NCBI GenBank assembly: GCA_900618425.1
Contig: UZAN01040240.1
Coordinates: forward strand, 21,535 to 85,534
From: Echinostoma caproni
Lineage: Eukaryota; Platyhelminthes; Trematoda; Plagiorchiida; Echinostomatidae
DNA length: 64,000 nt
Reading direction: 5' to 3'
Shown here: positions 17,702 to 61,222 of the stretch, in pieces
How positions within the stretch are numbered: the first letter of the stretch is position 1
How the letters are laid out: the number at the start of each line of letters is the position of its first letter
Notes under the pieces: model-generated
Told to the model about the DNA's origin: nothing
Database searches by the model: none
Seen by the model: only the letters and a program-made list of their open reading frames with translations
Position numbers and translations under genes: made by a program

Positions 17702-17796
17702 TCAACAGAAGGTAAACGTAGGTTCAGTCCCGCCAATCCCCTCCTCTTTGTTTTGATGAACCCAAATGTCATATTCTTCGGTAAACACAGCAATAC
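17702..17796 (-). CDS. candidate terminal exon of micro-exon gene
   Basis: A pyrimidine-rich acceptor (TTCGATCTTCCATCCACAG) is followed by GT completing a phase-1 codon, then 30 codons (IAVFTEEYDIWVHQNKEEGI, then GGTEPTFTFC) and a TGA at 17702. The entry phase agrees with every micro-exon upstream and the peptide keeps the Tyr/Trp/Asn flavour of the 3' micro-exons. Two AATAAA signals follow. A second minus-strand frame and a plus-strand frame are also open across this spot, so assignment as the terminal exon is an inference from phase, acceptor quality and position. Confidence 0.4.
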
Positions 17797-18849
17797 CTGT
17801 GGATGGAAGATCGAAGCAAACATGCGGTGCAAATTCAATTCGGTCATAACGTGAGCTGATTGGCACGCTGGTCACACACACGTGCCCTCCACACAATGGT
17901 TGGATGGCTCAGGATTTGACAGCCTAAACGAGATAGGAAGATTGAACGAGATTCAGAGTGAATGTTTTCACATGTTTGGTGAACGGCACTACTCGGGGGC
18001 AGCGAGTGTGCAAAATTCAACCCGTGACAAAATAATGGATACTGCTACTTCTATCTGGGATTTGTTACATTTTGTAACCATCAGCGTTTTTGTTTTTCAA
18101 CACAAAATCCGTGCTGTGAAAATGAATGCAGAGAACAACAACGTCGGGCAGTTATGTATACCACCTAAGCTGCATTGGTATCACCGTCACACAGAAACAT
18201 AGGCTTATGTGCGTAGTCACTGAGGCACTCTATGTTCAAATTGTGGCCTCTGCTAAATCTGTCTTTTACGCCCTCTATGGCGGCTAACCTCAACTCACAC
18301 CTGGATTGCATCCAATACTGCGTGAATTACTCTCTTTCATCATCATGAACCATTACCAGACTTTCTGTAGATCTGTGCAGAATGCGTGCAAATTCTCATT
18401 GTTGATTGCGCATCAAATGCACCAGACACACAAAACCATGAGCAAGTTGGATTAGCTGCCTTGGATGAGACGAATAGAAAATACCGATCCGGAGTTCCCC
18501 GGTAAAATTAGTCATTTCGATTAAGTGACTGGCTAAACCCTCCGGGAACTCGTTGAACCAATCACATCATGCAAAAACACGCGCACGCGTGAGCGCAGTT
18601 CTGCACGCGAGAAAGTACCCGATACACACTGCACTCATTGGGGGCAGTACGCACTGAGTAACTATCAAAAGATGCTCCTCAAATGCGAAAATTCTTTACC
18701 ACTGAATTTGTGTTTCATAACACTGCACTGAGAACTATTTTCACTCACCCATAGACCAGTAAATGAAAACAGACTAGAGGAAGAACTTTGCTGCAGGAAT
18801 GAATGCTTTGTCCAAAGCGAGCAACCCTGACCAGTTTACACAGTCTTAC

Positions 18850-18870
18850 ACAAATTTATGTACCAGATGA
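18850..18870 (-). CDS. possible 21-nt micro-exon (IWYINL)
   Basis: GTAAGA donor and a TGCTACCTAG acceptor bound 21 nt that read TC|IWYINL|T in phase 1. Composition fits the aromatic 3' micro-exons, but the acceptor tract is mediocre. Confidence 0.3.
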
Positions 18871-19473
18871 CTAGGTAGCACGTCGGAAAACCCGGATCAG
18901 TTTGAATGAGATTGACGAGCCATTCGATCGTAGGAAACGTTCCTGGATCCAGCTATCTCGACATACCAGGTTTATAACCAACAGTCCAGAAATGAATGAA
19001 TCCATTTAGCGAACGGGAATCATGGATCGTCCGAGGTAATCTCATTCGGGAAGATGAAAATGTCAACAAAATGGTCGTGTGAAGCAGGGTCTTTCAAGAT
19101 TTAATTAAATATCATACTATCTGTCCTGTGCGAGTCACAACAGCACAGGAGAGAGTGTGATCAATATAATTTTGATAATACCAAAGATGGCAACGGTTGT
19201 CAGATTGTTGTGGTATGTGAACAGAAATTCCGATCTCTGAGAGTCAGTATAAGATCCATACAACGGAGAACGGATACTTTTCCCTCAAGGAAAATATTAG
19301 ATCCCAGATGCATCGCTTAAGTCAGGTTTCATGTTGCCCTCCACATCCTGTATGTCGATTGCAACAAATTCTTTCTCCAAAGTGGTTTTTCAGTTGACCA
19401 TGAAGCGTGGGTATCTCAAATGGTTTCCACTCCATCCAAGTCTGATTTGCAGTGTGTCATTATTTCTTTCCAG

Positions 19474-19507
19474 TGAAAAGAAAGATCAGAGCACCTCTGA
19501 AAGTCAG
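19474..19507 (+). other. plus-strand exon-like segment
   Basis: A strong acceptor (CATTATTTCTTTCCAG) and a perfect CAG|GTAAGT donor bound 34 nt on the plus strand. An upstream acceptor (GTGGTTTTTCAG at 19392) with the same donor would give a 115-nt exon open for 38 codons. No partner exons were found, so it is recorded only as a splice-bounded segment. Confidence 0.2.
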
Positions 19508-20018
19508 GTAAGTGCATGTTTGAATAAACAATGTGTAACAGAACAACAGCCGTTTGAATTGCCGGTAAAAAGCAGAGAATTTCGCCAAATTCAAATCGCA
19601 TGCGAAAGAACGGTGAAACCGCTTCCAAATGACCTGAGTTTCACTGGGTGTAAAGAGTATCACGTAAAAATCACCTTACTGTGTGGTGGGATTCAGTCAG
19701 AGATAAAATGTTACAAAACCTTAGTGTAATGTGTGTAAGTAGATTTGCGGTCGACAAATCACGACACTTTCGGCATGTATGTTACACGGGATTGGAGCTG
19801 AACTTGACCATATTACAGCTAACTAAAGCAAAGGATGATTGAATGAAGGGAGAGAGAAGGGGTATAACCTTACAAACGTTTAGTTTAAAAAATACGCTGA
19901 TTTTGAAAAAAACTAAAACATTCAGCATGATTATCCTGAAGCGAGTTTTAACGTAGCCGAGTTATAGACTGTCGTGTATATCTTTGTGAACAATGGTCAT
20001 GAAAATATGTTCACTTAC

Positions 20019-20036
20019 GTAGTTGCGGTATGTAGT
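20019..20036 (-). CDS. 18-nt micro-exon (YIPQL)
   Basis: Acceptor TACATTTTCCTCAG, donor GTAAGT. Reads AC|YIPQL|C in phase 1. It belongs to the series of 18-nt exons at 23757, 25000, 27185, 27657 and 29446 that share length, phase and a Tyr/Pro core; it is the most 3' strongly supported one. Confidence 0.6.
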
Positions 20037-23000
20037 CTGAGGAAAATGTATCCGGGGTAGAATTTGGCAAAAATAGAGTAAATTCAAATGGAACGATTTA
20101 GGTATATATTAGGGGTAATTAGTCACACATGCTGTTTAAATTCGTTGCACCTGTATTATGTGTTTGCTTGGATGCAGCCCAGCCAGTATCCCCGGGTCTA
20201 TTGAAGAACACTCAACAAGTGACGTGGTAAATTTCCCTAACAGTTTCACTTCTTCTGCTTACACGGGTGGTACTGAAGTATATCCGATTTCCTAGTGATA
20301 TCACAACCCCATAGGTAAAAGAGCTGTTCACTGTGATCAGCATTTCATGCGTCTGATCCCGATTGCGCCCACCTTTGTGCCGAGGGTGCCAAATTTTCGT
20401 CGGCAAATGTTGACTATGATGCCAAACGGATTCAAACATTACAAAGGCAAAGAAAAATAAATCAGTAGTGAATACTATCCATTTGGTGATAAGAACAAAG
20501 CAGAAAAATGTGATTACTTCAGAACTGGATACGGGTTGTGCTCTATGTAATAACCAAACATGAATAAATTACATATCATCAAGCGATTTTTCCGCATTTT
20601 CCGAAACATCCTGAAAACTATTTTTATTTTCCCGTATGTCAGTATGCAACTGAATGAACTAGTTGAACTCTTTCTAAGCCGCTGCAGATTGAGGATAAAT
20701 CAAGACTTCTGAATGAAGAAATCCAGAAAGATAATGGAAGTGGCAAGAAAGGCATGCAGTGCGATGCATGCTAGCAGATATTTGGAATAAGTGTAGTGAA
20801 CTGGAAATAGGGGTATTGTTCAGTGTACACAGTCCTACTGGTAATTGGTTTTCCGTTGACTGCAGACGAAATGGACGGAAATTTCTGCCATAGAGCTTTG
20901 CAATAGGTGGACTGGCAAAGACCATTTAGCTTACTCTGTCTAAATAAATTCCTTTGAACTAATCTCTCTGGCAGACTATAAGCAATCGGACCTAAATTAG
21001 CGGAATCCCTGTCGGGCGAATGGTGTGAGTCTGATTCGTTAGGCAAACATTGATCATTGAGAGCCGGTAGCACGGCACACTCGCTTTTCCCTTGCGGTCG
21101 GGATAGTGGCATTCTTCGTTGAAAAATGTAATTATTATTTCCATGGTGCTAGAACACAAATGGGGGATGTTTGTCTCCAAAAACGATTCCCCATAATCCT
21201 ATCTAAATGAAAGAACATGGATAAAAACGGCAGGTTTGTCTCTGCATTTACGGTAAAAGAACCTACTGAATCCTATTCGAATCGTGATCTAGTGCACACT
21301 ATGTGAGTCCGTCGGACGAAAGTAGCACCATCCACTTTCTTGGTGTCATACTTGGTCACATTTCATAAAACTGAGGTTTAGACTCAAAGTGTTGGTCTAT
21401 AAATTCTGAAAGCCAATTGATCAAATTTCTTAAATATCTGACAAATTCGAGGAACGGGGTTATCAACTTTCAAAATTATTCCATGTGCGTAATGGAGGAT
21501 TTGATTAAATTGCAAATGGGGATCTGTCGTGTGTATAGCAAATGAAGCGTGAACTGATCCCCAGTTGGGTCGATGGATTCGCACGGCTGATGAGACCCAA
21601 CCAGGCTAAAACAGCAGTGCTTCCTAACTTTTCAGTTCACGCATCATTTGCCATAGACACGACGAATTCCTAGTTGAAGTTTTTAAACTACCGAAGAAAG
21701 GTAACTAAAGATAGTCAAAATCTGACTTATATAAAAGCTGAATAACTTTCCTAAACTGATCAGAAATGAATTTATGACAAGCGACTTTTATAACGAATTT
21801 AACAGAATATGCTTTCTGTTCCCTGAACACAGAATGGGTTCCCGAGAATCGTTTGTCCGCTCTCCAAATAAAATGAATCTAGCGTGCTTCTTACGATTCC
21901 TGACGATTCATTGACCGCTTTATGGGGGAGGGTCTAATATCTAACTGATAAGTTGCTTACCATTAACTAACCGCAACACGTATGCTACCGTGTTCATTTG
22001 AAGGTAATTAAGTTGTGATAATATGACCAAACATTAAATCAATGGGAGAAACTTCTGTCAATACCAAGGGTAATCCGATTTTGTATCTGTTGTTACGGAA
22101 ACCTAACAGAACAATTTTTCGGGCCAGGTGCAAAATTTACGAAACCTTTCTACAGTTGCTTGTTTCATCTTGTGCTAAACCGTGGTATTCTATAAAAATG
22201 AAGCTTCGGAAATTCACACGTGATCAAGCACCCAATGTCTGACTTGTCACGTGGCAGAAATTGGCTGACAACAGAGGTTCCTTGGAATAAAGTTGCAAGT
22301 GCTGCATCACTGACGTTGGACCAATTAAAACGTCGGTTGTATACTGGTATCATCGTGGTTATGCATCGAAATATACTTCAGAGATTACTTGAGAGATCGT
22401 GTGGTGATGTACTGGTCATTCAGTGTTGCTGAAATTACTGAAGTAGTCGCATTGCAGATTTGGGATTAGACGATCGGATTTTGATCGGTTGTGTTTCATT
22501 TATTATGCAACGTAGTTGCACTAGGTAAATAAGGAAGTAAATTCAACATCCAGTCAGTTGATGTCTAGAATAATATTTAACTCTCACCCAATCATCTTGA
22601 ATTATTTGTAGACCAGTACTGGCTATACGGTACTAGTCATTTCAGTAAACCTGTTTTTTCATGGACTGCTTTATCATCTTGTTTTTTCGTTGAGCTTTAA
22701 AACGCTTGAAGGTTTTTCGTCAGCAGCCACTCTCTGTGATATAGGTTTTGCTAAGCTTTCGCTGCAGCAAACACGGTGAAAGTGATCCTGGTTGATCGAA
22801 ACTCGGTTTTTTCGATTTCCAACAGTCTATCGAAATATTGATAGTTTATTCTCCTAGCCAATGTTGCACACTTAATTTACAAATGTTCGTTTACGCGGAA
22901 TATGAACAAATAAAGTCAAAAGTCATCTATAACCATGCCGATGGCTGTAGAGAAGGGATGGTTGGTAAGACTATCAAGTTCAGTGGGTATACTTTATAGA

Positions 23001-23756: not shown

Positions 23757-23774
23757 GTGGAGTCGGGTGGTAAA
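23757..23774 (-). CDS. 18-nt micro-exon (YHPTP)
   Basis: Acceptor CATTGTTAACCCCATAG, donor GTAAGT. Reads TT|YHPTP|C in phase 1. With the preceding exon's last base (T) the junction codon is TTT (Phe) if 25000-25017 is the neighbour. Confidence 0.6.
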
Positions 23775-24999
23775 CTATGGGGTTAACAATGACAACAAAC
23801 AATCTTGATTTTGGTATAGTTAAGGCGAGCATAGGGTTTCTAGCATTGAAACATAGAATATCACCGTTGCGCATGCATATAATGACATTTTTCGCAGCAA
23901 CCAAAGTGCAGCATAGCACCAAAAAGTAGACGGAACAGTTAGACACAGTATCTGAGTAGAAATCTTTCGCTATGGATACATTTACAAATCCATTAAAAAG
24001 GCAGTTACTGAAGTACAACGCTATAAGTGGACAAATAAATAACCGAAAAAGACAATATTCGTGTCATGCAAGAAGACAAAATCGAAGATAACTAATTAAA
24101 GCCGTACAAGATTCAAGTGATCCATCAAGAAAGGATATGTATAGTTATAGAGAAAACCAGAAAATAACGAGAAGTTAGAAATCGAAGGGATATAATCTAC
24201 CAAATTAGTTTGCAGTTCTGCAACAAACAATTCATTGTTCAAAACAGGCCCACAAGAACACAATCGGTGCGGGTCTCAATTCAGAACTATCAATAAGGAC
24301 ATAATTTTGATTTTAGATCATCCAACTGGTTGATCAGACCTACCCTTAATCCTACACAAAACAATTTCTGGAAGATCAGAATTCGTCGAAGAACTCGATC
24401 AGTCAGCATATCCGCATCCATCAAATCTACCTCCTCAGGCAACCAATGTACTCGTCAACTCGATCCGTCACAAACGTCACAACAGAACAACAGCAGCCAC
24501 CGACTAATTGATAACCAACTAACAGATTAAATGTGTCTACATTGTCTTCTATCACCACCATAAAGATAAACAACTACCAAACAAGAAACTCTATGTCTTC
24601 CTACCACACTCACTGACCCATACAACGAAATAAAACTGCCTGGGTTCAAATACAGTTAATTCCGATATTGTGAATATCATGTCGATTGGTGATGAAATCT
24701 TGGCAATCTGAGAGGAAAACTTCGGGAACAAATGGGGACTTTTTTACGAGTTAGCAGGAAAAAGGTTCATCAGAGACGTTTTGTAACTGGCATGTTATTT
24801 CGCCGATTGACTTCCCGGATTAAATCTTACGTGCTGAAAAGATGTCACAACAACTTATACATTTTCCTTCATTGGAATGCGACACTACTGTTATCTGGTT
24901 TCTCTGATCAAGTTGTGTTCCACAATGGACCGGAACTATTGATAACAAATGATCAGGAGATAGGATTGCACAATTTACTGCAAATCTGTTAGGACTTAC

Positions 25000-25017
25000 A
25001 TGGATATGGGTAGGGTG
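25000..25017 (-). CDS. 18-nt micro-exon (PYPYP)
   Basis: Acceptor TTTATACTTCAACAG, donor GTAAGT. Reads CA|PYPYP|T in phase 1, a near-perfect Pro-Tyr repeat. Confidence 0.65.
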
Positions 25018-27184: not shown

Positions 27185-27202
27185 GCAGATTCCAGTTGTA
27201 TT
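27185..27202 (-). CDS. 18-nt micro-exon (YNWNL)
   Basis: Strong acceptor (GCCTTTTTCTCCCTTTAG) and GTAAGT donor. Reads AA|YNWNL|C in phase 1. It lies 472 bp from the similar exon at 27657 and shares its pyrimidine-rich CTCCCT acceptor tract, suggesting local exon duplication. Confidence 0.65.
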
Positions 27203-27656: not shown

Positions 27657-27674
27657 GTCGATACGGATAGTAAT
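27657..27674 (-). CDS. 18-nt micro-exon (YYPYR)
   Basis: Acceptor CCCTGTCTCTCCCTCTTAG, donor GTAAGT; reads AT|YYPYR|C in phase 1. If spliced directly to 29446-29469 the junction codon is TAT (Tyr). Confidence 0.65.
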
Positions 27675-29445: not shown

Positions 29446-29469
29446 ATCCATNTCCATACGGGAAGTAAT
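29446..29469 (-). CDS. 18/24-nt micro-exon (YFPYG) containing an N
   Basis: Acceptor AATGTGTTCACAG, donor GTAAGT. As written it is 24 positions with an N at 29452 and reads AT|YFPYG-X-G|T in phase 1. The N is flanked by TCCAT on both sides; collapsing this apparent join leaves 18 nt reading AT|YFPYG|T, the family length. Flanks match the exon at 33429 (GTAAGTT donor side, CTGTGAA.. and AATCAGG blocks beyond the acceptor). Confidence 0.6.
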
Positions 29470-30109: not shown

Positions 30110-30139
30110 ATGGGTTGTACAGGTCCGGATATGGTTCAT
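30110..30139 (-). CDS. 30-nt micro-exon (EPYPDLYNP)
   Basis: Acceptor CGTTTTTGTTCACTAAAG, donor GTGAGT. Reads AT|EPYPDLYNP|T in phase 1. It stands in the same relation to 29446 as 34191 does to 33429, i.e. it is the duplicated partner of the other 30-nt exon. Confidence 0.65.
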
Positions 30140-33428: not shown

Positions 33429-33446
33429 ATCCATATTCGTTCATAT
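33429..33446 (-). CDS. 18-nt micro-exon (MNEYG)
   Basis: Acceptor CATTTTATGCATTCACAG, donor GTAAGT. Reads AT|MNEYG|T in phase 1. The splice junction from 34191-34220 would create TAT (Tyr). It is the duplicate of the exon at 29446. Confidence 0.65.
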
Positions 33447-34190: not shown

Positions 34191-34220
34191 ATTCGAAGGG
34201 CTCCTCCGGCAATGGTAGAT
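34191..34220 (-). CDS. 30-nt micro-exon (LPLPEEPFE)
   Basis: A long pyrimidine tract (CTTCCTCATCCCCTTTCTATT) precedes an AAG acceptor; the donor is GTGAGT. Reads AT|LPLPEEPFE|T in phase 1, Pro/Glu-rich. It has the same length and phase as the exon at 30110. Confidence 0.65.
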
Positions 34221-37215: not shown

Positions 37216-37956
37216 TATACCATGGTTTATGATAGTCTGATGACTGTTTACACTGCCCCTTTGACCTTTCATGGCCATGTATCAATCCCAACTGTGTCAG
37301 AATCATTAGACCAATGACTCCCCTCTGCACTTACTCAACGTTTTTGTGTTACTGCCCCAGCCCCTATTTGGTCACTTAATTGTGGGTCTCTTCGCTGTTT
37401 TACAATTTGTGGTTGGACAGCTGACTTCGAGCACTGGATATTCACGTTTGTTCAGCAGAATCCTTTATTGAGCCTAACAGGCATTTGTGTTCCAGCTTTG
37501 TAAATTTATTTCCTTGCTTTTTAAATCAGGTCACTATTCTTTTGTTTGAATCCCTGTTTGCTGTGCAGTGATTAAGTCGCGTTATTGCGCTACGTTGTTC
37601 TTTAGCTTGCTGGGTTAAAGTAGACAGTCCCGTAGACGTTGTGGATCAATAGCGTCATTTTTTACGGGGTTTGGATTTCACCACGCGTTGCTCAACGGTC
37701 TCATCTAACCATGCAGGAAGACCGTTGGAATGGTCGATTTTGATTGGGCTTCGGTCTGATCTGAACAATTGGTTTGGATCCTACAGGGCTAAACGACTAA
37801 TTGATCACAGGACAACAAAATGAGTGTGACAGTTGTGGTTGTATAAAGATGTTTCACCTAGCCCAAGTTTTACTCGCGTAAATGCGGAGCATTGTTTGGA
37901 TGCATTCAGAAAATCGAACCTGCATATCATCTGGGCGGTACACTTACCAGACACTG

Positions 37957-43145: not shown

Positions 43146-43199
43146 TTGTGGGTTCCATCGGTTGTTTGGGTGACACTATCGAAGGATGAACGGGGCTCA
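43146..43199 (-). CDS. 54-nt exon (SPVHPSIVSPKQPMEPT)
   Basis: Acceptor TTTACCTTTGTGTTCAAATTCAG, donor GTAAGT. Reads TG|SPVHPSIVSPKQPMEPT|A in phase 1. The Ser/Pro/Thr-rich composition and CCACAA-type exon end match the 57- and 72-nt exons at 49175, 50307 and 59170. The upstream intron translates as a hydrophobic stretch in another frame, which is probably coincidence from its pyrimidine richness. Confidence 0.65.
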
Positions 43200-45286: not shown

Positions 45287-45342
45287 CTCCAAATATTAAT
45301 GATAAGTCACTTGTAAATGGTGGAATTTGAGGCATGACTTAC

Positions 45343-45354
45343 TGACTGTATTCC
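45343..45354 (-). CDS. 12-nt micro-exon (NTV)
   Basis: Acceptor CTTCGTGTTTATTACTAG, donor GTAAGT. Reads GG|NTV|A in phase 1. Confidence 0.5.
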
Positions 45355-45580: not shown

Positions 45581-45598
45581 ATGCAGTTTTTGCAGCTT
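45581..45598 (-). CDS. 18-nt micro-exon (AAKTA)
   Basis: Acceptor CTAAAATAATTTTCAG, donor GTGAGT. Reads AA|AAKTA|T in phase 1. Same length, donor and Ala/Lys flavour as LANKA (55186) and LASNA (63885), suggesting a third relative of that exon. Confidence 0.6.
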
Positions 45599-48463: not shown

Positions 48464-48475
48464 TGAAAAAATCAG
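48464..48475 (-). CDS. 12-nt micro-exon (DFF)
   Basis: One of the best acceptors in the set (CCATTTCTCTTTTTCTATAG) with a GTGAGT donor. Reads CT|DFF|A in phase 1. Confidence 0.6.
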
Positions 48476-49174: not shown

Positions 49175-49231
49175 GTAAATATTCAGGTGCTTTCGCCTCA
49201 ATTGGAACTTTGGTAATTTCGGTTTTCATGG
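49175..49231 (-). CDS. 57-nt exon (MKTEITKVPIEAKAPEYL)
   Basis: Acceptor TTCTTTTTTCTGTTAACTTCACACCTCCAACAG, donor GTGAGT. Two bases (CC) complete a codon, 18 codons follow and one C remains; the other two frames are closed. It follows the 21-nt exon at 49343 just as the 72-nt exons follow theirs at 50477 and 59340, so it is the third, diverged member of that exon pair. Confidence 0.65.
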
Positions 49232-49342: not shown

Positions 49343-49363
49343 TTGGGGCAATGACAGGGATAT
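49343..49363 (-). CDS. 21-nt micro-exon (IPVIAP)
   Basis: Acceptor TATACTTATTTGAAG, donor GTGAGC. Reads AT|IPVIAP|A in phase 1. Homologous to FVGGAP at 59340 and IARGAP at 50477: same length, CCAA exon end and TTTGAAG acceptor. Confidence 0.6.
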
Positions 49364-50306
49364 CTTCAAATAAGTATACAAACACAGCGAGAGAACAGTT
49401 TAGAATGAGTTTGTATACATGGATTGAAATTAATAACTCTGCAAGTCATCAGTTAAGAGGAGTAAATTTGTGGTTGAATAATCTGCTGCCGAATTTGGAG
49501 GACAGTTCCATTGGCACTACTTGTAAACCTGTGTGCACTGGGCTATATAACTACGGATTGTTTGAAATGTGCCTTAAGTTTTCGGAAAAATAGCACAACT
49601 AGACAGATATGTGTACTAGTCTGTATTCATTTGTCATTCGATCCACCTAACCCCAAGTACTTTCGAAGCGTCTCTCATTCAGAATGAAACTGATACGTCC
49701 AATGCTATAGTGTCATTCCTCCATAAGATCGATGGGGATTACATTTGGCATTTGCTTTAAAACAAACGCGATTTTTTGACGGTTCTGCCGATTTCCGATT
49801 AGGTTCAAAGCAAATCATATTAATCGTCAATAACAAGACACGCCTTTAATTGATCATTTAGGAGCAATATCACATTGATGGCTTTATCGGTACAAATGTG
49901 ATGCGGTACCAATGCGGCCCGGAAAAGTTCACCTGGACGACGATTAATGCAAGATACACCTCGCTCTGGTATATGAGTTCCGCAATATTACGAACTAAAG
50001 GTTTTCCATTAGTGTAAGTGCACCACCGCTTGTATAGATTTCAGTGAATTTTCGGTCTATCTTTGTTTTTTTATTGCTTACTAATGAGTAGTGTGTCAAG
50101 CACGCGGAAACGATTTTCGGTTAACAGAAGTGTGTTGGAAATAAGATTTCGCTGTTGTTTTAAACATGATAAATTTGATGCATGCAATGCAAAATACAGT
50201 CATAGAGTTCCACTTTACTGGTGGACATCATGTAAATTTTTAGAAGGTTGAGGTAGTATTCAAATGTCACGAATAATCTGATCAGACAATGCACAATGAA
50301 ACGTAC

Positions 50307-50378
50307 TTGGAATTGTAGTTACTCTGGGATCAGGTTGAACTTGATTGATTTCACTTTGTGGTGTCGGTTGAGGTTGAC
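50307..50378 (-). CDS. 72-nt exon (QPQPTPQSEINQVQPDPRVT)
   Basis: Acceptor CTCTCTGTTTGATCGAG, donor GTACGT. It is exactly 72 nt, GT|23 codons|A, and aligns codon for codon with the exon at 59170: both start QPQPTP, contain VQPD and RVT, and end in CCAA or ACAA. Conservation of the frame while bases differ argues for coding constraint. Confidence 0.7.
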
Positions 50379-50476
50379 CTCGATCAAACAGAGAGTAAGT
50401 ATATACGGTTACTTATTGGAATTTTTAATTGAAAATGATTAAGTGCGTTGGTATATTTTGTGAAAAGCCTATTCAC

Positions 50477-50497
50477 TTGGTGCACCGCGGGCGATAT
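50477..50497 (-). pseudogene. decayed 21-nt micro-exon (IARGAP), acceptor lost
   Basis: Aligns with 59340-59360 and 49343-49363 through GGTGCACCAA and the flanking introns. The donor is GTGAAT, but the acceptor dinucleotide is AA instead of AG (TTTCAAA where the relatives have TTTGAAG), so this copy is probably skipped. Confidence 0.55.
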
Positions 50498-50835
50498 TTT
50501 GAAATAAAGCGCATTCATGTGAATGTGCACTACACAAACATGAATTAAACAATCATATTGCTGGCATCCAGCTCACATTACGTGTTGCCATAGCCAAAGT
50601 AGAAAAAGAAGACATTTTTTACCAGTGTAAATAAATGTGTTTTCCGACCTCGAACCCCATTTGTTCGAAGTGTTCTATCGGACGAAAGTGAGTTCGAGAA
50701 AGGGCTGAAGTTGAATTATGTTAATTTATGTTGCGACTGATCATCAGCGATTAGACTCAGTCAAACAAAAGTTCAATGTTGACAAACAGACAAACAGATC
50801 ACATCGAATCAATCCAAATGATAGAGCGAACTGAA

Positions 50836-50847
50836 GTTAAATGTCCG
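50836..50847 (-). pseudogene. decayed 12-nt micro-exon, donor lost
   Basis: CGGACATTTAAC on the minus strand aligns with the GIQ exons at 51520 and 59529, including the CATCAG acceptor side shared with 51520. The donor position reads TTCAGT where the intact copies have GTAAGT or GTGAGT. Confidence 0.45.
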
Positions 50848-51519
50848 CTGATGATGTGGCAGACAAACGTGCGTCAGTGCTTTGTTTGTATGCCAGCTAA
50901 TGAACTCATGTTACGTACAACAAATCACCCAGAGTGATTCGAATTTGATGGAATTAGAATGCAAGCAAATTGTAGATCCAGGTATCAAGATTATAGCCCG
51001 TGTTCTGGAGCATTCGTTCTAACGATCGTTTTTGTTAAGATCTAACTTTTGCAGTGATAAATCATTGAAAGGCGTTAGGGTCAACCCATTAATAAATCAA
51101 ATTAATTTCAACCTGAGTGCTCGAACGCTTGAGAAACTCAGCCTTCGGGATTGTTACCATATTCATTAGTATTATTATTTTATATTTAATTATTTTTCAC
51201 GCGTAGTTTACCTAGTGTGGCAGAAGAGCTCACTAATGTGCGTGAACATTATAGCCTTACGGATGTAGGAGGTCAAAAAATGGCTAAGCACAAACTAATG
51301 GGGTACAATATCTGCATAATATAGCATGTGCAGATTTGATGGGGTGTAGAAATCAAGTGGAATTGGAATGGATCCCTAGAGTGTGCGTGCGTGTCAAAAT
51401 CGAAGTCGATTCGTTTGTTTCAAAACAATGTCCGGAGTCAGTTGAGCGATTCACGCGGAGCACCTGCTGATGGACAAAAGCCAACACAATCTGCAATCTG
51501 CTCGCATAGCTGAACTTAC

Positions 51520-51531
51520 TTTGAATGCCCG
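51520..51531 (-). CDS. 12-nt micro-exon (GIQ)
   Basis: Acceptor GGTTTCCACGTCATCAG, donor GTAAGT. Reads CG|GIQ|A in phase 1. It encodes the same tripeptide as 59529 and is flanked by sequence also present around the decayed copy at 50836. Confidence 0.6.
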
Positions 51532-52581: not shown

Positions 52582-52593
52582 TTGCGACCGCAG
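52582..52593 (-). CDS. 12-nt micro-exon (AVA)
   Basis: Acceptor GCCCGTTTACTGAATAG, donor GTGAGT. Reads CT|AVA|A in phase 1. Confidence 0.5.
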
Positions 52594-52904
52594 CTATTCA
52601 GTAAACGGGCATAGATCGTGAATTGGGATTACTTTCATATCTGAGGTATGAAAAGCATTTACTGCAAACCAGTCATGAGTGAATTCAATGCTTGTCCAAC
52701 GTTCGTGCTGTATTATTCATTCACCCTCAATCATTCCTCAAATGTTATGGTATTCCGCTTACTCATATACAGTCCCCAATGAATGACTATTGACTAACGC
52801 GCTATAACTGTGCTACTGATGTTTATCGGATGAACATGAATGCGAAATCGGTCGGTCTAGGACTAATCTACGAGTCTTATACCATATTGCACATTATTTG
52901 ATCA

Positions 52905-53413
52905 NNNNNNNNNNNNNNNNNNNNNNNNNNNNNNNNNNNNNNNNNNNNNNNNNNNNNNNNNNNNNNNNNNNNNNNNNNNNNNNNNNNNNNNNNNNNNNNN
53001 NNNNNNNNNNNNNNNNNNNNNNNNNNNNNNNNNNNNNNNNNNNNNNNNNNNNNNNNNNNNNNNNNNNNNNNNNNNNNNNNNNNNNNNNNNNNNNNNNNNN
53101 NNNNNNNNNNNNNNNNNNNNNNNNNNNNNNNNNNNNNNNNNNNNNNNNNNNNNNNNNNNNNNNNNNNNNNNNNNNNNNNNNNNNNNNNNNNNNNNNNNNN
53201 NNNNNNNNNNNNNNNNNNNNNNNNNNNNNNNNNNNNNNNNNNNNNNNNNNNNNNNNNNNNNNNNNNNNNNNNNNNNNNNNNNNNNNNNNNNNNNNNNNNN
53301 NNNNNNNNNNNNNNNNNNNNNNNNNNNNNNNNNNNNNNNNNNNNNNNNNNNNNNNNNNNNNNNNNNNNNNNNNNNNNNNNNNNNNNNNNNNNNNNNNNNN
53401 NNNNNNNNNNNNN
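52905..53413. other. assembly gap (N run)
   Basis: A run of 509 Ns. The 33 bases before it (52872-52904) are repeated exactly right after it (53414-53446), as expected if two overlapping contig ends were joined with a nominal gap. Confidence 0.9.
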
Positions 53414-54335
53414 GAGTCTTATACCATATTGCACATTATTTGATCATCATCATTGTACATTAGTTTTATTTGATGCCTGGTCTCATGTCCGAAAGTAAGG
53501 AAAACACTGCGATCATAAGCAGAAATGGGTACAGAGTATTATCACGTCATTGAATGGGTGATTATAGTTTCAGTGAGGTATATCGACTAACCTCTAATGA
53601 CTCGAATTGACCTTCTTTCACATTTCTAATTCTCAACACTAGGGACATGATCCGCTATATATTTGAAATTATTTGTATTATTAATACAGCTTTCGTTTTT
53701 CGTATCAAACGAAGCGCTCCATAATTCACAAAGAATTAAGGAGGCTTTTCTACCACATTTGTTCTTTATACATGTTCGCTAATACTTTCCTGCACACAGA
53801 AAACAGCNGTTACGTGATGACTGACTGCGTTCTTTACAAAGTAGATTCGCCTTGAATGCATGCCTCTGAATAAGGTAGAACTGAGAAACGATTTAACCTT
53901 GGTTTGAAAGGTAAACTTGTTGGTTAGCTGTTATGCGTAGATTTTCTAGTAAATTATTTCGGTACATGTGGATAAACTCGGATCTAGAGAGTTGCCTCCA
54001 TCTTTCACTCAAAAGATTAGTGCTTAATTGTCTGATAACTGGATCGTTCCAAAATCGAAATCGGTAGGCACGCGAGTTTCATGTGAATAAAAACCCTTTT
54101 TAGTTCAGGTTATCTGTAGTACAACTTACCGTTCTGGGATAAAAACAATGTGCTTTCGATATGAGCTACGTCACTGCAAAATATCCACAAACTTTGGTAA
54201 TAAATTAACGGAATTGCCCATGCTTTTTCCAATAAACAAATGAGACACAAACAGTTACAACCAATTTGATATGTTCAAGGAAACTTTAGATTCAAAAACG
54301 AGTAGAAAAATAGTCTATATCATTTTACAACTCAC

Positions 54336-54347
54336 CATCTCCGGATT
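54336..54347 (-). CDS. 12-nt micro-exon (SGD)
   Basis: Acceptor GGATATTTTCTCTTAG, donor GTGAGT. Reads AA|SGD|G in phase 1. Duplicate of 63101 (SGV). Confidence 0.6.
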
Positions 54348-54934
54348 CTAAGAGAAAATATCCGCAGATCAACGAAATGCAATGATACAATATGAAAGAG
54401 TTCGTTTCTAGTTTGTTTATCAATGCCTTGGAGCAGGTATGTTTTATTCCAAATTGACCCAATTAAATTCAAGGTGTATTGTGGTCTTCCAAGCAACATC
54501 ATTTAAATGACTGCGTCATTTTTGGACAGGTTATTCAAATGTAAACGGAATTCCAGTCGAAAACATATGGCAAGAGCTCTCGCCACTCCGATGTAATGGT
54601 ATTTTTGTTGACTCGCAGCTATAAGTGCCATCATGCGGGATATCTCCAAAACGTTTCCTTGTCAATTAGCCGTGATACATGTTCTAAATGATCAATCACC
54701 TCTTACATGCCCGTTAGTGATTAGGCGCTTGGTGTGATGAAAATACATGCTGTATAATTTAACTTGTGGTTGCGAACCTTGGAAATATCCCGTGTGGAAA
54801 ACATCGAAATCCATGGGTTTCTGTCAAGCTTACCAATTAATACATATCCAAGAATCATTTCTAGCTATGTACGCATGCTGGGCACACTTGTTCACCACAC
54901 AAAGTAGAGCGGTTAGAGATAATTAATGACTTAC

Positions 54935-54946
54935 TAGTTGCATCCA
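54935..54946 (-). CDS. 12-nt micro-exon (DAT)
   Basis: Acceptor ATACTTTCTATTGCTTACCAG, donor GTAAGT. Reads TG|DAT|A in phase 1. Differs by one base from the exon at 63646, and the homology continues into both introns. Confidence 0.65.
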
Positions 54947-55185
54947 CTGGTAAGCAATAGAAAGTATTTGGAAATTTCCTTCAATATTTTTTTACGATTA
55001 TTCACAACACGTAGCCACTGGAATATGGGATGGAACAGAATACAATATGGGCAATATATGGAATCAGGATTGCAAACGTAGCTACGGATTTGTAATAGTA
55101 AAAGTGCGAATGTTCTCGACTTCATAATTTTAATTAAACAAATTGTTCATTCATACTTTCCTGGAATTAATTGGTGAAGACTCAC

Positions 55186-55203
55186 ATGCTTTATTGGCTA
55201 GAC
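55186..55203 (-). CDS. 18-nt micro-exon (LANKA)
   Basis: Acceptor CCGCATTTATTCAATCTTCAG, donor GTGAGT. Reads GT|LANKA|T in phase 1. Duplicate of LASNA at 63885. Confidence 0.65.
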
Positions 55204-55699
55204 CTGAAGATTGAATAAATGCGGAAAATGTACTCGGCTTGAAACGCGTTGCATCATGCTTATCAGAACTACGGCGCAGACTTTAACAATATGATGAATC
55301 TCCAGAAAGACAGTGTTTTAAATTTTTTCCCGCTACTCATTCGGCACCCAAATGGTCAATGTCATCATTGTGGTGATTTAGATATCATAATATCAAATTC
55401 TTCTACCACCCTTCCTCTACTCAATTTCTCTTTATCTGTCGACTGCTTAAGTATGATTGCGCCCGTTCTCCTTGAAGTTGGCTAATGATTTGGTCGTTTT
55501 ACAAACAAACTTATTTATTATTCATAACTCCATTCGGTATCAGCTAAACCTGTAGCATTGAGTCCGTTCGAACCTCCGAGTGGTATGCATGTTTCCGGTT
55601 AATCGCATGACAGTCTTCACTATTGTGTTTTAAATAACACGTGTTTTTCATGTTGTTCTTTGGTCATTGGAATTCTTATGATGAAACTATGAAAATCTA

Positions 55700-56068: not shown

Positions 56069-56080
56069 CCCATATTCCAT
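56069..56080 (-). CDS. 12-nt micro-exon (GIW)
   Basis: Acceptor TGATCGCTGTCCTATTCAG, donor GTGAGT. Reads AT|GIW|G in phase 1. Pairs with GFW at 56952, 883 bp away. Confidence 0.6.
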
Positions 56081-56951: not shown

Positions 56952-56963
56952 CCCAAAATCCAC
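56952..56963 (-). CDS. 12-nt micro-exon (GFW)
   Basis: Acceptor GCATTGTTCTTTTCCACAG, donor GTGAGT. Reads GT|GFW|G in phase 1. Confidence 0.65.
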
Positions 56964-57394
56964 CTGTGGAAAAGAACAATGCATACCATGGAATGTAAAT
57001 GATCAAACCAAAGTCGATGTTTGCTACTGCAACAATCACTCGGTGTATTCGGTCAAAAATCTGTTCATTTTGTTAAAATACAATCAAACCACATTTTCCC
57101 AACTAGGAAACTGGGTTGGAGAATCAGTCGAATGTGATTGATGTAGCTAATAAAAAATAAACTGCGAACATTTGGTTATTATACACATGGTTCTGATTTG
57201 CATGGTATGTAACACTTCCGCGTATAGAAAAACAATATGACTGATTGATTAGAACTGCCCATCCTTCCCACTTCATCTTCACGCACATTTTTCAGCTCTT
57301 CCAGTCAACCGTACACTGCGTCGGGCCAATTTAAACTGTTTGACTACTTTTGAAGACGACACCTTAACGAACAGGAATTGACCATTCGGTTCAA

Positions 57395-57650
57395 CCCTAT
57401 CATGAGCGGGTTGGCACAGTGGAAACATAGACGCTTACCATGCAGTGGGTCCGGAGTCCATATCCCGGACGGGATGGTGGATGTACACTGCTGGTGAGCT
57501 CTAACAAGAGCAAAACTCGAGTCTAGGGTTTCCGAGTGTATGGTTGGCCGGAAGATTTGAGGAATGTGCGTGAGGTGAAGTCTGGAGGGTGGTCAGTTGT
57601 AATCCATCAGTCAAACTATCAAGAATTCCACAACACTGCTCACAAGTAAT
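57395..57650 (+). mobile_element. tRNA-like SINE, family E
   Basis: Starts GAGCGGGTTGGCACAGTGGA (A-box-like) with a B-box-like GGAGTCCATATCCCGGAC about 50 bp on, followed by a ~170-bp unrelated body (GGTGGTCAGTTGTAATCC and AATTGTGAGTTAAGTACT). A short GTGGCACAGTGG echo occurs near 33400-33420. The single copy makes the family call tentative. Confidence 0.4.
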
Positions 57651-57957: not shown

Positions 57958-57969
57958 TGGCTGGAGCCT
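57958..57969 (-). CDS. 12-nt micro-exon (APA)
   Basis: Acceptor TTGAATTGTAAATTCCAG, donor GTAAGT. Reads AG|APA|A in phase 1. An alternative acceptor nine bases downstream would leave only 3 nt. Confidence 0.5.
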
Positions 57970-59169
57970 CTGGAATTTACAATTCAATGACAAAGAAACA
58001 AAAGGGGAATGGTAGTTATACAAAACCCACACATATAACTTGGATAAGAATAACCGTCATGGCACAGAAGCAAACTGTTCCTGCAGTTCGTCGTCAATTT
58101 TCGCAACACGATGAATAAAATGCTTTCGCTGGTTGCAGATGTGATATATTTAAACATGATTTATTTTGGCGTACATGCAATAAGGGTAGAGACACTGTTC
58201 ATTCACCATAGTTGCGTAAGAGCGACGATCATGTCTGACGCATAACTCAATTCGAAGTTCTAGATTAACTTGTCAATTTCCGTGCTATCCTCTCAATCTG
58301 GATTTTGTTTATTTAGACACTGGCGTTGCTCTTTGAGGTTCAATACGAATACCAAATAGGCATAATTGAGGTTCACCAGTTTGATCATCCTATTGTTTCT
58401 AAAACGTTTGAATCATTTTTTGAAACCATGCTTATTTGGTGTGGTATCAGGAGTACCTGCATATAGAAAGCAGAACCGCATTGATAATTTAGACAAATGA
58501 ACCGAAGTTCGGAAATCAATATTTTTATTATCTATACGAACAATCAGGTACGATAAATAACTTGGTGATTAGAACCGCTCTGTCCTTATTTGATGAAAAT
58601 TTGGTTTTGCGGTAGCTTGAAGCGCGTATCCTGAGCGTTATATATATATATGATATACGATATAGTGATGACAATATAAACCGCCTTGATGACGGTCAAT
58701 GCAGAAAACCCATTCCCGAGTGTCAGATGATTGCAATCAGATGTGGATTCCTCTGATGGTCAGATGAAATCAAAGAAGAACTTAATTGCCAGCACAACGA
58801 AAATAGCCACCAGTGGAAATACACTGTTGACTCGTCAAGTCTGCCTGATAAATGAAAGTGGAGCGCAGTATTTTTTGGTGGATTGTTGGTCTGTCTACTT
58901 GCCGCGAAAATGTTGTCGTTTGCTGATTGCTTACTAATGAGCAGTGTAATGTGGTTACCAGAATTGTTGTACGAGAAGGATCTAGTGATTCTTACTACAA
59001 GATAAATCGGATGCATACAATGTTACTCGAGGTGCGGATTAGCGCCGTATGCCGGATACGCTTTATAGAGTCCCAGTTTACAGATGGGTGTCATGATTAT
59101 GTTAGTATTTAAGGAAAACATTTCTGAATGCACGGTCAAAATGCTGGGCAATGAACCAATGAGACTTAC

Positions 59170-59241
59170 TTGTATTTGGAGTTACCCTGGTATCGGGTTG
59201 CACGTTTTTCGTTTCAATTGTTGGCGTCGGTTGAGGTTGAC
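59170..59241 (-). CDS. 72-nt exon (QPQPTPTIETKNVQPDTRVT)
   Basis: Acceptor ACTTTCTGTTCAATCGAG, donor GTAAGT. GT|23 codons|A in phase 1, the only open frame. Aligned copy at 50307 has identical length. Pro/Thr-rich, compatible with a flexible, possibly O-glycosylated secreted segment (inference). Confidence 0.7.
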
Positions 59242-59339
59242 CTCGATTGAACAGAAAGTAGGCATTAACGATTATTTATTGAATTTTTCGGTTACTCAAG
59301 ACCATCAAGCATTGTTACTTTTGTGAAATTCATACTTAC

Positions 59340-59360
59340 TTGGTGCACCACCGACAAAAT
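59340..59360 (-). CDS. 21-nt micro-exon (FVGGAP)
   Basis: Acceptor TCCTTTTCATTTGAAG, donor GTAAGT. Reads AT|FVGGAP|A in phase 1. The intact reference for the damaged copy at 50477. Confidence 0.65.
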
Positions 59361-59528
59361 CTTCAAATGAAAAGGACAATAATGCTTGATTTACTTATGT
59401 AAATACGTGCATACAGCTGCATAAAAGATCCCAAGTTCGGTGGCCATAATCAATTTTGCCTACATACGGCTTAAACTCAAGATATATACAATACAATTTT
59501 GTTCAGGGTAAAACCGTTATGAACTCAC

Positions 59529-59540
59529 TTTGGATTCCCG
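59529..59540 (-). CDS. 12-nt micro-exon (GIQ)
   Basis: Acceptor GCATTCTTTACCTTCAG, donor GTGAGT. Reads CG|GIQ|A in phase 1. Confidence 0.65.
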
Positions 59541-59769
59541 CTGAAGGTAAAGAATGCAATGGTTCGTCAATGAGATGAATTAATACGGATGCGTTGTACT
59601 TTCGGTAAACGATCAACAGCTCATTGTGAGCCAGGAACATCAGGAAAATAAAACACACTTCCTGAATCGAAATTGCGGTGATATTTTTTACTTCAGACCA
59701 TCTCCGTTCATCAGAATAACCCTTATATACAATATATTTTCACACGCATCTGAATCCAGACTCTATGTC

Positions 59770-60375
59770 AAACAAACCATGGTACAATCATCTTTATAAC
59801 AAAGAAAAATGTTCTATGATTTGCATGTGGGCTGAATACTGCCAGGTTGTCCATGCCAAGGCAGTTGAATTTGCCTGAGGAATCCATAACCGGAGCCGTT
59901 GGCCCGCCAAAGCCTGACCCGGAAAGTAGGGGTGCGGTGTGTGAAAACCGCGATCCATAGGGGACCTGGGTCCAGTTGATCGGATAATATGCCCCTTGGA
60001 CCGAGTTCAACGCCCAAGGTGATTAATACAACTCAATACGAAATTCAATAGGTGAACACTGCCATAAACAGAATATTGTGAGTGTGGTTTATGCGCCTCC
60101 TTCTGATTGGTTGGAAATCCGTTTTTTGACCACATCCCCTAGGTGAACTACCAGTGGTCCACCAACCCGGTTATAGCCCCGGATGTTGGCTTTTCGTCTT
60201 CTCACTTTAGTGGGAAAAGGCCTCCACCAAGAGAAGGCAGTTAGTAGGACTTACCCAGCAGAGGCTGTTCAAGACGCTTGGTCGTATGGGAGCATTTTCC
60301 GAGGTGCAAGGGAAGGGTGACTAGCCGCAATCCTAGACACCCCCTCGGCTATACTGAGGCCTTACAACCAGTGAT
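59770..60375 (-). repeat. interspersed repeat family D, copy 3
   Basis: The minus strand carries, in order, CTTGCACCTCGGAAAATGCT, CATACGACCAAGCG, GGTGGAGGCCTTTTCCCAC, ACCACTGGTAGTTCACCTAG, GATCGCGGTTTTCACACAC and TCAGGCAAATTCAACTGCC, matching 11795-12215 and 44815-45270. It is the longest copy (~600 bp). Open frames within it do not resemble known proteins. Confidence 0.6.
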
Positions 60376-61152
60376 ATAGGCTATCTATATTTGCAGTTCT
60401 AAAATCTTAGAGGACTTTAGATTCATCAAGTTTCAAATGGAAGTTTATTCGATAAAACTGTTCATACCTTACGTTGTTCAACAATCTTTCTCCGTTTCGT
60501 ATCAACATTGAATTATTTCAAATGATCTCGATTGCATGAGAGTGTGCATCCTAGTGACTGCTGAATGCGTATTCTCAGGCATGGCATATTGTGAATTTTG
60601 TTCATTGTAGATCACATGAATCATAAAAATCTATGGCTGCAGTACCTAAAGACACTCAAATAGCAGTTTGAAGCGTGTATAGACACGAATACATTCAGTA
60701 CGGTATCACTAAAATGCATCTCCACAACAGGATTTAAGTAGAATGAAGGTGTAGGGAGAAGGAAAAATGAGATTCGAGCAGACCAGTGTGGAGGCAAACT
60801 TAAGTGTTTTTAGACTGTGTCTAACCGTTTGCAATTGCTAAGTAGCATTGCAACTGAGTAACTTAATCCTTTGGATTGAACTACTACTTGGGAGGAACCT
60901 TTTTTTCCTGTTTTAACATCCTTGGTGTCTCTGTCTATTCGGCTTTCGTTTAAGAAGACATAAGAAAGTTGCATGACATAAATATTTTCCGTTGAACAGC
61001 CTGATTCACCAGTGGACTGGCTACTTCTTGGTACATGTCTAAATATTCTGATAGAATGCAGCAATTTTGGATCACAAATGCAAATACTAGTACATACCAT
61101 GGACTACACACACAAGCGTTTCCAGGAATATAATAACAAAGCATACACTCAC

Positions 61153-61222
61153 ATGAGATTGTAGCTATCAGGCAAATGGAAAAAACACGAAAACGCTTTG
61201 CGTTACAATATTTTTCTTTCAT
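61153..61222 (-). CDS. signal-peptide exon of candidate micro-exon gene
   Basis: From ATG at 61222 it encodes 23 residues: a basic N-region (MKEKYCNAKRFR) and a hydrophobic core (VFSICLIATIS), then one base before a GTGAGT donor, i.e. phase 1, which is the entry phase of all downstream micro-exons. This is the expected layout of a MEG first coding exon. Caveat: a TTTTCTATAAAG acceptor at 61231 would also allow it to be an internal 78-nt symmetric phase-1 exon. Cleavage site would lie in the next exon. Confidence 0.55.

What the first reader, a model, noticed from the sequence alone, without database searches (positions are those of the whole stretch)
17702..61222. Giant minus-strand micro-exon gene with all-symmetric, phase-1 exons
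About 25 well supported segments of 9-72 nt (12, 18, 21, 30, 54, 57, 72 nt recur) each sit between a GT donor (mostly GTAAGT/GTGAGT) and a YAG/AAG acceptor. Each has length divisible by 3 and is open in the one frame that splits codons 2+...+1. A signal-peptide-like exon at 61153-61222 ends in the same phase, and a stop-containing exon at 17702-17796 starts in it. Phase-1 symmetric micro-exons in flatworms are the signature of MEGs, whose products are secreted and diversified by exon skipping. Coding content would be roughly 2% of a ~43 kb locus. Single short exons could be chance; the shared phase, strand and lengths, and the pairs of homologous exons, are hard to explain otherwise.
Basis: partly seen in the sequence, partly recalled or inferred. 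Interest (0 to 1): 0.93.

Follow-up and report, generated by a model that had tools for sequence, protein, structure and literature searches.

The report
Giant micro-exon gene, 5' end missing
This stretch of an unidentified (perhaps flatworm) genome appears to hold most of one very long gene cut into about thirty tiny coding pieces that could each be skipped without breaking the protein, a design already known from schistosome micro-exon genes.

Summary
The exon array is real and is not chance. On the minus strand, taking the best acceptor for each GTRAGT donor without looking at length, 23 of 29 segments are multiples of 3 and 17 of 29 are exactly 12 or 18 nt; 200 shuffles gave at most 2 of the latter, and the plus strand gave 3 of 14 and 1 of 14. 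I list 33 candidate exons, hand-picked; the 32 internal ones are symmetric and open in phase 1. Many are paralogues: two colinear cassettes 8.0-8.9 kb apart, part of a third, and a two-exon duplication 4 kb apart. The 'signal-peptide exon' 61153-61222 is better read as a 12-nt micro-exon (61153-61164): its paralogue at 52582-52593 aligns only over that exon and its splice sites, and cassette exons lie upstream of it, up to 63902. The stop exon 17702-17796 is one of 37 comparable candidates. So the 5' end is probably outside the window and secretion is not shown. The closest described architecture is SmVAL6 (64.7 kb, 38 exons, small same-phase exons, no signal peptide), then MEGs. Species not identified; no RNA evidence. 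Verdict: new member of a known kind.

The parts
63885..63902 (-). micro-exon A1, 18 nt
Evidence: CAG acceptor, GTGAGT donor; aligned with B1 and C1.
63646..63657 (-). micro-exon A2, 12 nt
   Evidence: AAG/GTAAGT; 11/12 identical to B2
63101..63112 (-). micro-exon A3, 12 nt
   Evidence: TAG/GTAAGT; aligned with B3, 9/12
   Evidence: TAG/GTGAGT; B4's best match, alignment spans 61135-61179 only, exon 7/12; A4's own best score is tied with another minus site and one plus site scores 1 higher; the same upstream extension is closed next to B4
59529..59540 (-). micro-exon A5, 12 nt
   Evidence: CAG/GTGAGT; 10/12 identical to B5
59340..59360 (-). micro-exon A6, 21 nt
   Evidence: AAG/GTAAGT; aligned with B6, B6b
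59170..59241 (-). exon A7, 72 nt, Q/P/T-rich
   Evidence: GAG acceptor (unusual), GTAAGT; 56/72 identical to B7
57958..57969 (-). micro-exon A8, 12 nt
   Evidence: CAG/GTAAGT; no counterpart found in cassette B
56952..56963 (-). micro-exon A9, 12 nt
   Evidence: CAG/GTGAGT; context aligned with B9, exon itself only 6/12 identical
56069..56080 (-). micro-exon A10, 12 nt
   Evidence: CAG/GTGAGT; resembles A9 (score 19); no counterpart found in cassette B
55186..55203 (-). micro-exon B1, 18 nt
   Evidence: CAG/GTGAGT; A1 paralogue, 14/18
54935..54946 (-). micro-exon B2, 12 nt
   Evidence: CAG/GTAAGT
54336..54347 (-). micro-exon B3, 12 nt
   Evidence: TAG/GTGAGT
52582..52593 (-). micro-exon B4, 12 nt
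   Evidence: TAG/GTGAGT
51520..51531 (-). micro-exon B5, 12 nt
   Evidence: CAG/GTAAGT
50477..50497 (-). exon copy B6, 21 nt, probably decayed
   Evidence: no AG at acceptor (AAA), donor GTGAAT; aligned with A6
50307..50378 (-). exon B7, 72 nt
   Evidence: GAG acceptor, GTACGT donor; A7 paralogue
49343..49363 (-). micro-exon B6b, 21 nt
   Evidence: AAG/GTGAGC; local second copy 1.13 kb from B6
49175..49231 (-). exon B7b, 57 nt
   Evidence: CAG/GTGAGT; aligned with B7
48464..48475 (-). micro-exon B9, 12 nt
   Evidence: TAG/GTGAGT, acceptor score 16
45581..45598 (-). micro-exon C1, 18 nt
   Evidence: CAG/GTGAGT; aligned with A1, B1, 9/18 each
45343..45354 (-). micro-exon C2, 12 nt
   Evidence: TAG/GTAAGT; aligned with A2, B2
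43146..43199 (-). exon C7, 54 nt (label by position only; homology to A7/B7 not shown)
   Evidence: CAG/GTAAGT; an in-frame upstream ATG with a hydrophobic run exists here too, so it could also be a first exon
34191..34220 (-). micro-exon D1, 30 nt
   Evidence: AAG/GTGAGT; aligned with E1
33429..33446 (-). micro-exon D2, 18 nt
   Evidence: CAG/GTAAGT; aligned with E2
30110..30139 (-). micro-exon E1, 30 nt
   Evidence: AAG/GTGAGT
29446..29469 (-). micro-exon E2, 24 nt (one ambiguous base N inside)
   Evidence: CAG/GTAAGT
27657..27674 (-). micro-exon F1, 18 nt, Y/P-rich
   Evidence: TAG/GTAAGT; resembles F2
27185..27202 (-). micro-exon F2, 18 nt
   Evidence: TAG/GTAAGT, acceptor score 17
25000..25017 (-). 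micro-exon F3, 18 nt, Y/P-rich
   Evidence: CAG/GTAAGT
23757..23774 (-). micro-exon F4, 18 nt
   Evidence: TAG/GTAAGT
20019..20036 (-). micro-exon F5, 18 nt
   Evidence: CAG/GTAAGT
17702..17796 (-). candidate terminal exon with stop, weakly supported
   Evidence: CAG acceptor, 30 codons then TGA, AATAAA 431 nt from exon start; one of 37 candidates this good on the minus strand of 17-64 kb (17 of them with a poly(A) hexamer within 600 nt), against 25 (11) on the plus
37948..37956 (-). possible 9-nt micro-exon, weak
   Evidence: CAG/GTAAGT, acceptor score 10; not counted among the 33

Best explanation
The minus strand carries the interior, and probably the 3' part, of one giant gene of symmetric class 1-1 micro-exons, of the kind known from schistosome MEGs and the SmVAL6 tail. 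About 30 exons, mostly 12 and 18 nt, sit between introns of about 1 kb (median). Because each is a multiple of 3 in the same phase, the spliceosome can skip or include any of them and change the protein by 4 to 24 residues without a frameshift, giving many isoforms of a chain rich in P, A and T and then in P and Y, probably unstructured. The same property lets exons be duplicated freely: a cassette of exons of about 8.7 kb was duplicated in tandem (A, B and a fragment C), with a separate pair duplication (D, E) and local exon gain and decay (B6b, B6). Shown: exon array, paralogy, one decayed copy. Inferred: transcription, splicing, skipping, disorder, single gene, order of events. My split for identity within this reading: VAL6-type tail about 0.4, free-standing MEG(s) about 0.4, something else about 0.2.
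For: Length and phase statistics against plus strand and shuffles. Colinear A/B paralogy of 8 of 10 cassette-A exons, offsets 8.0-8.9 kb. Canonical order gives no stop at any of 32 phase-1 junctions and no internal stop in 208 codons, against 8 and 9 internal stops in phases 0 and 2 (the internal count is biased, since openness in phase 1 was a selection criterion for most of the list). A/B substitutions in 8 exon pairs (decayed B6 included) give dN/dS 0.61 in phase 1, 1.11 in phase 0, 2.53 in phase 2; few sites, significance not tested. SmVAL6 precedent: 35 isoforms in 67 cDNA clones by presence/absence of small same-phase exons or alternative 3' sites (PMC2270263, passages).
Against: No transcript data. 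Over 15 paralogous pairs the three codon positions differ almost equally (0.32/0.31/0.36), so protein-level constraint is weak. Zero junction stops also occur in 15% of permuted exon orders, and 21 of 528 forward exon pairs (adjacent ones included) would make a stop, about what random order gives, so nothing shows selection for free skipping. Six of the 29 length-blind segments are not symmetric and 2 of the 23 symmetric ones are closed in phase 1. No homologue for three window ORFs, though I do not know whether that database holds flatworm proteins. The 8.9-kb exon-free gap between 43146 and 34220 could be a gene boundary.
Confidence: 0.82

Rival explanations
1. VAL6-type composite gene (a sub-case of the best explanation): these exons are the long alternatively spliced C-terminal tail of a venom allergen-like (SCP/TAPS, CAP) protein whose CAP exons lie upstream, beyond base 64000.
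For: SmVAL6: 64,721 bp gene, 434 aa, group-2 intron phase 1/1, no signal peptide, about 295-aa tail; [quoted passage not shown] Here: 33 listed exons, 815 nt (about 271 codons), 22 of 33 under 20 nt, phase 1, no credible signal peptide, array reaching the window's upstream edge.
Against: No positive evidence: no CAP domain among 30 window ORFs scanned with Pfam, which include only 10 of the 22 minus-strand ORFs of 60 aa or more above 53.5 kb. SmVAL6's reported pentapeptides (KDDQY, KDEQY) imply 15-nt exons, and no 15-nt exon is in my list. Tail sequences could not be compared.
Confidence: 0.4
2. Two or more tandem MEG genes rather than one: for example one ending after the A-C cassettes and a second with the Y/P exons (D-F), with a first exon near 43146-43270.
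For: 8.9-kb exon-free gap between C7 and D1; C7 extends upstream in frame to an ATG with a hydrophobic stretch; S. mansoni MEGs cluster on some chromosomes (PMC10526429).
Against: 7 of 33 exons have such ATG extensions; terminal-exon candidates are not clearly above the plus strand (37 against 25); A, B and C share colinear internal exons with no start or stop between them that stands out.
Confidence: 0.2
3. One reading: a single secreted MEG starting at 61222 and ending at 17702.
For: 61153-61222 does read as ATG plus hydrophobic stretch, ending at a GTGAGT in phase 1.
Against: Three cassette exons lie upstream of it; its paralogue B4 matches only the 12-nt exon and splice sites and its extension is closed.
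Confidence: 0.07
4. A low-complexity structural or secreted protein of another animal (elastin-like design: symmetric class 1-1 exons, alternative splicing), unrelated to MEG/VAL6.
For: Species not identified; P/A/T- and P/Y-rich composition. The elastin comparison is recalled, not from a call.
Against: Elastin-type exons are longer (recalled); series of 12-18 nt exons resemble schistosome micro-exon genes.
Confidence: 0.1
5. Chance GT-AG segments.
For: Single short exons are cheap, and some loose-scan candidates look like chance.
Against: 17 exact 12/18-nt segments against a shuffle maximum of 2; plus strand 1 of 14.
Confidence: 0.01

Closest known systems
SmVAL6 (Smp_124050), Schistosoma mansoni venom allergen-like 6, micro-exon tail
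   Same: Gene of about 65 kb, 38 exons, 17 under 20 bp, small exons all in one phase, near-identical exon peptides, no signal peptide, about 295-aa tail
   Different: Its CAP domain exons were not found in this window; 12/18-nt exons dominate here, while its reported pentapeptides imply 15-nt exons; no sequence comparison was possible
Schistosome micro-exon genes (MEG families)
   Same: Coding region mostly of short, largely symmetric exons, long introns, isoforms by skipping, fast evolution (passages)
   Different: Described as 10-20 short exons and 7-20 kDa with a signal peptide mostly in the long 5' exon; here 33 exons if one gene and no credible signal peptide; lengths 12 and 18 nt, where the review says mostly 15 bp
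MEG-4 (10.3 antigen)
   Same: Tandemly repeated exons (a passage and the title of Davis 1988 in a reference list)
   Different: 81-base repeats by that title, not multi-exon cassettes of 12-72 nt exons
Tb-MEG1 of the myxozoan Tetracapsuloides bryosalmonae
   Same: Called a micro-exon gene outside flatworms (passages)
   Different: No sequence or structure seen here

Membership tests
MEG | Coding region made mostly of micro-exons of about 3-36 (up to 81) bp | tested here: met
   28 of 33 listed exons are 12-30 nt, the rest 54, 57, 72, 72 and 95
MEG | Symmetric exons allowing skipping without frameshift | tested here: met
   Length-blind test 23 of 29; 32 of 32 internal exons in the picked list
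MEG | Signal peptide, mostly or entirely in a long 5' exon | tested here: inconclusive
MEG | About 10-20 exons, 7-20 kDa product (usual size, not strictly defining) | tested here: inconclusive
   33 exons, 815 nt in the window if one gene: then not met; gene boundaries are unknown
MEG | Isoforms by exon skipping in transcripts | not testable with these tools
   No RNA data
MEG | Sequence similarity to a named MEG family | not tested
   No MEG sequence was at hand; three searches with window ORFs found nothing
VAL6-type gene | CAP (SCP/TAPS) domain exons 5' of the micro-exon tail | tested here: inconclusive
   None in 30 ORFs scanned with Pfam; expected position is beyond base 64000
VAL6-type gene | Long 3' tail of dozens of small exons all in one phase, gene of tens of kb | tested here: met
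   33 listed exons over 46 kb, the 32 internal ones open in phase 1
VAL6-type gene | No signal peptide | tested here: inconclusive
   None credible in the window, but the start is not in view
Schistosome (or flatworm) origin | Species identity | tested here: inconclusive
   No protein homologue; own-genome search did not complete

The most novel reading that the evidence does not exclude
A VAL6/MEG-type gene in a lineage outside Schistosoma, possibly larger than SmVAL6 once the part beyond the window is counted, whose class 1-1 micro-exons multiply as whole multi-exon cassettes (A, B and a remnant C are visible) and decay singly, so that the locus records the birth and death of splice-in peptide modules and a combinatorial isoform repertoire grows by cassette duplication rather than by gene family expansion.
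Probability: 0.25. Interest if true: 0.68.

Novelty: new member of a known kind. Interest (0 to 1): 0.47.

Why it matters
Micro-exon genes are hard for automatic annotation (PMC10526429). A length-blind test (best acceptor per strong donor, then lengths mod 3 and exact-length recurrence, against the other strand and shuffles) finds one from raw DNA, and the exon paralogy shows how such a gene can grow. If it is a VAL6 tail, it also shows that signal-peptide-like readings next to micro-exons can be artefacts of the acceptor tract, which matters when such products are called secreted.

Tried and rejected
Rejected: the signal-peptide first exon 61153-61222. Not accepted as evidence: the terminal exon 17702-17796. 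How the list was picked: one search printed 72 rows (phase-1-open, symmetric, 6-120 nt), often several acceptors for one donor; I kept one per donor, added B6 and B6b from the alignment and the last exon from the finding. Of the 34 strict-donor sites I kept 29 and dropped five: 63199-63204 (6 nt), 54130-54165 (36), 43363-43434 (72), 37948-37956 (9) and 30986-31018 (33), for weak acceptors or odd length; they may be real. Rows with weaker donors such as 61454-61537, 61904-61996, 58935-58994 and 24831-24935 were left out without a test for paralogues. A second copy of the B5 context at 50825-50896 lacks a donor and was not counted. No counterpart of A8 or A10 stood out in cassette B (searched 49300-50290 and 48480-49170, whole minus region). 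In one search, 21 of 465 pairs score 18 or more; of these 59340/59170 is an overlap artefact and 45581/30110 and 63885/57958 are not colinear; with a null 99th percentile of 16 about five of 465 would pass by chance, and flanking windows of long exons were longer than the null's. The ungapped intron-flank divergence (92 of 160) is inflated by indels and is not used. Pfam scans of 30 ORFs gave only sub-threshold hits (DUF3130, Colicin_im, preSET_CXC, zinc_ribbon_6); Rfam at gathering score and the tRNA scan gave none; protein searches with window ORFs 42850-43296, 41167-41619 and 32236-32604 gave none. Paper searches aimed at micro-exon genes outside schistosomes (top 5-25 rows seen each) led me only to schistosome papers, plant micro-exon papers and Tb-MEG1; the Opisthorchis felineus genome paper holds none of six terms tried. 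DeMarco 2010 and Berriman 2009 are not held, so their content is second-hand.


Full report
What was checked. The finding claims about 25 symmetric phase-1 micro-exons on the minus strand between 17702 and 61222. Scanning both strands for segments of 9-90 nt between a pyrimidine-rich YAG/AAG acceptor and a GTAAGT/GTGAGT donor gave lengths mod 3 of 44/9/15 (68 segments) on the minus strand of 17.7-64 kb, 11/16/10 (37) on the plus strand, and 3/4/4 and 1/3/6 in 1-17.7 kb; with any GTA/GTG donor the excess is nearly lost (696/639/635 of 1970). Overlapping candidates could bias this, so I repeated it taking, for each strict donor, only the best-scoring acceptor, without looking at length. Minus strand: 43 donors, 29 with an acceptor over threshold, lengths mod 3 23/3/3, nine of exactly 12 nt and eight of exactly 18 nt, 21 of the 23 symmetric ones open in phase 1. 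Plus strand: 26 donors, 14 segments, 3/5/6, one of 12 nt. Two hundred dinucleotide shuffles gave on average 0.2 segments of 12 or 18 nt (max 2) and 1.5 symmetric phase-1-open segments (max 5). The array is not chance.

Anatomy. The working list has 33 exons: 13 of 12 nt, nine of 18, three of 21, one of 24, two of 30, and 54, 57, 72, 72 and a last one of 95 nt; 815 nt in all, introns 98 to 8925 nt, median about 1 kb. Donors of the 32 internal exons are GTAAGT 16, GTGAGT 13, other 3; acceptors of all 33 are CAG 16, TAG 9, AAG 5, GAG 2, and AAA once. The list was picked by hand plus paralogues from alignments, so its openness in phase 1 is partly selected. Less selected signs that phase 1 is right: no stop at any of the 32 consecutive phase-1 junctions, against two in phase 2 (15% of permuted orders also have none); and dN/dS between cassettes A and B of 0.61 in phase 1, 1.11 in phase 0 and 2.53 in phase 2, from few sites and without a significance test. 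Against strong protein constraint, differences over 15 paralogous pairs are spread almost evenly over codon positions.

Paralogy. Self-comparison finds direct repeats: 59065-59384 with 50202-50519 (50293-50507 also with 49161-49373), 63639-63965 with 54928-55265 (54926-55045 also with 45334-45455), 34105-34242 with 30017-30159. Aligned on the minus strand, each contains listed exons with splice sites in register. Pairwise alignment of the contexts of 31 exons (465 pairs), against a null of 1408 random minus-strand pairs (99th percentile 16, maximum 24), contains a colinear series: A1/B1 47, A2/B2 27, A3/B3 20, A4/B4 18, A5/B5 25, A7/B7 81, A9/B9 23, with offsets of 8.0-8.8 kb (A7/B7 8.86), plus D1/E1 25 and D2/E2 28 with offsets of 4.0-4.1 kb. 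Several of these scores alone lie inside the null's range; the common order and offset carry the case. With A6/B6, 8 of 10 cassette-A exons have a counterpart in B; none stood out for A8 and A10. Cassette C keeps two recognisable exons. B6 has no AG at its acceptor and a poor donor, while a nearby second copy, B6b with B7b, has both sites: exon decay beside exon gain.

The signal-peptide exon. The paralogue at 52582-52593 aligns with 61179-61135, that is polypyrimidine tract, TAG, 12-nt exon and donor, and nothing of the ATG part. For B4 this is the clear best match (18, next 14); for A4 it is tied with a site near 50500, and one plus-strand site scores 19, so the pair alone is moderate evidence and its place in the colinear series is what supports it. 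Next to B4 the same extension is closed after one codon. Seven of 33 exons have an in-frame upstream ATG; C7 at 43199 gives, by eye, a better-looking signal peptide (no predictor was run). Three cassette exons lie upstream of 61222. I conclude that 61153-61164 is a 12-nt micro-exon and that the true start is probably not in view.

The 3' end. Terminal-exon candidates as good as 17702-17796 (acceptor score 12 or more, 30 or more codons) number 37 on the minus strand of 17-64 kb, this one included, and 25 on the plus; 17 and 11 have a poly(A) hexamer within 600 nt. The last well-supported micro-exon is 20019-20036.

Interpretation. Symmetric same-phase micro-exons are a known device: in SmVAL6, 67 cDNA clones gave 35 isoforms by presence or absence of exons or alternative 3' sites (PMC2270263, passages). 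SmVAL6 is 64,721 bp, 434 aa, with group-2 intron phase 1/1, no signal peptide and about 295 residues after the CAP domain (PMC2270263 section 5). The present locus fits that tail in exon number, size, phase and lack of a credible signal peptide. MEGs proper are described as 10-20 very short exons (PMC10526429, section 5 part 1 of 2), with the signal peptide mostly in the long 5' exon and 26 of 33 micro-exons symmetric in one set (PMC4671649, passages), and 7-20 kDa (PMC10399815, passages). [quoted passage not shown] Fast evolution of MEGs is documented (PMC4350168, passages). I cannot place the locus between MEG and VAL6-type because the 5' end is missing.

Limits. The source organism was not identified: three protein searches found nothing, and the own-genome search did not complete (nine tries). 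Sub-threshold hammerhead-like stretches (46373-46416, Rfam Hammerhead_1, 19.6 bits against a gathering score of 34; 57488-57526) would fit a flatworm genome but are weak, and a simple core pattern is no commoner than chance. There is no RNA evidence at all; transcription, splicing, skipping and the single-gene reading are inferences.

Noticed in passing
46373-46416 (+) and 57488-57526 (+): Weak, sub-threshold type I hammerhead-like stretches (Hammerhead_1 19.6 bits, cut-off 34; Hammerhead_HH9 22.1 bits, cut-off 52). The core pattern with one mismatch occurs 5 times in the window, no more than chance (6.1 expected), and the related repeat at 21.5 kb gives no Rfam hammerhead hit.
   Followed up: partly
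41335-41456, 46070-46194, 21507-21682, 46362-46477: A family of short repeats that match each other, some palindromic; one holds the 46373 hammerhead-like stretch.
   Followed up: partly
11321-11438 and 39916-40034: Two copies (79% identical, opposite strands) of a short repeat with a GGTTCGAACC-like stretch, perhaps tRNA-derived (the tRNA likeness is my recognition, ARAGORN calls no tRNA).
   Followed up: no
59832-60275, 44852-45273, 11819-12233: Copies of a diverged dispersed repeat; one sits in cassette C just downstream of exon C2, where no counterparts of A3-A6 stood out.
   Followed up: no
57238-57613, 36865-36951, 32567-32756: Palindromic elements with long inverted repeats.
   Followed up: no
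28703-29081 and 52905-53413: Assembly gaps (N runs); the second is flanked by a 33-nt exact repeat (52872-52904 and 53414-53446), so it may be a mis-joined or collapsed repeat. Exons could be hidden in either gap.
   Followed up: no
   Followed up: partly
1-17700: No gene recognised: 5 of the 93 ORFs of 55 aa or more listed there were scanned with Pfam, with only sub-threshold hits; the micro-exon signal is absent here.
   Followed up: partly
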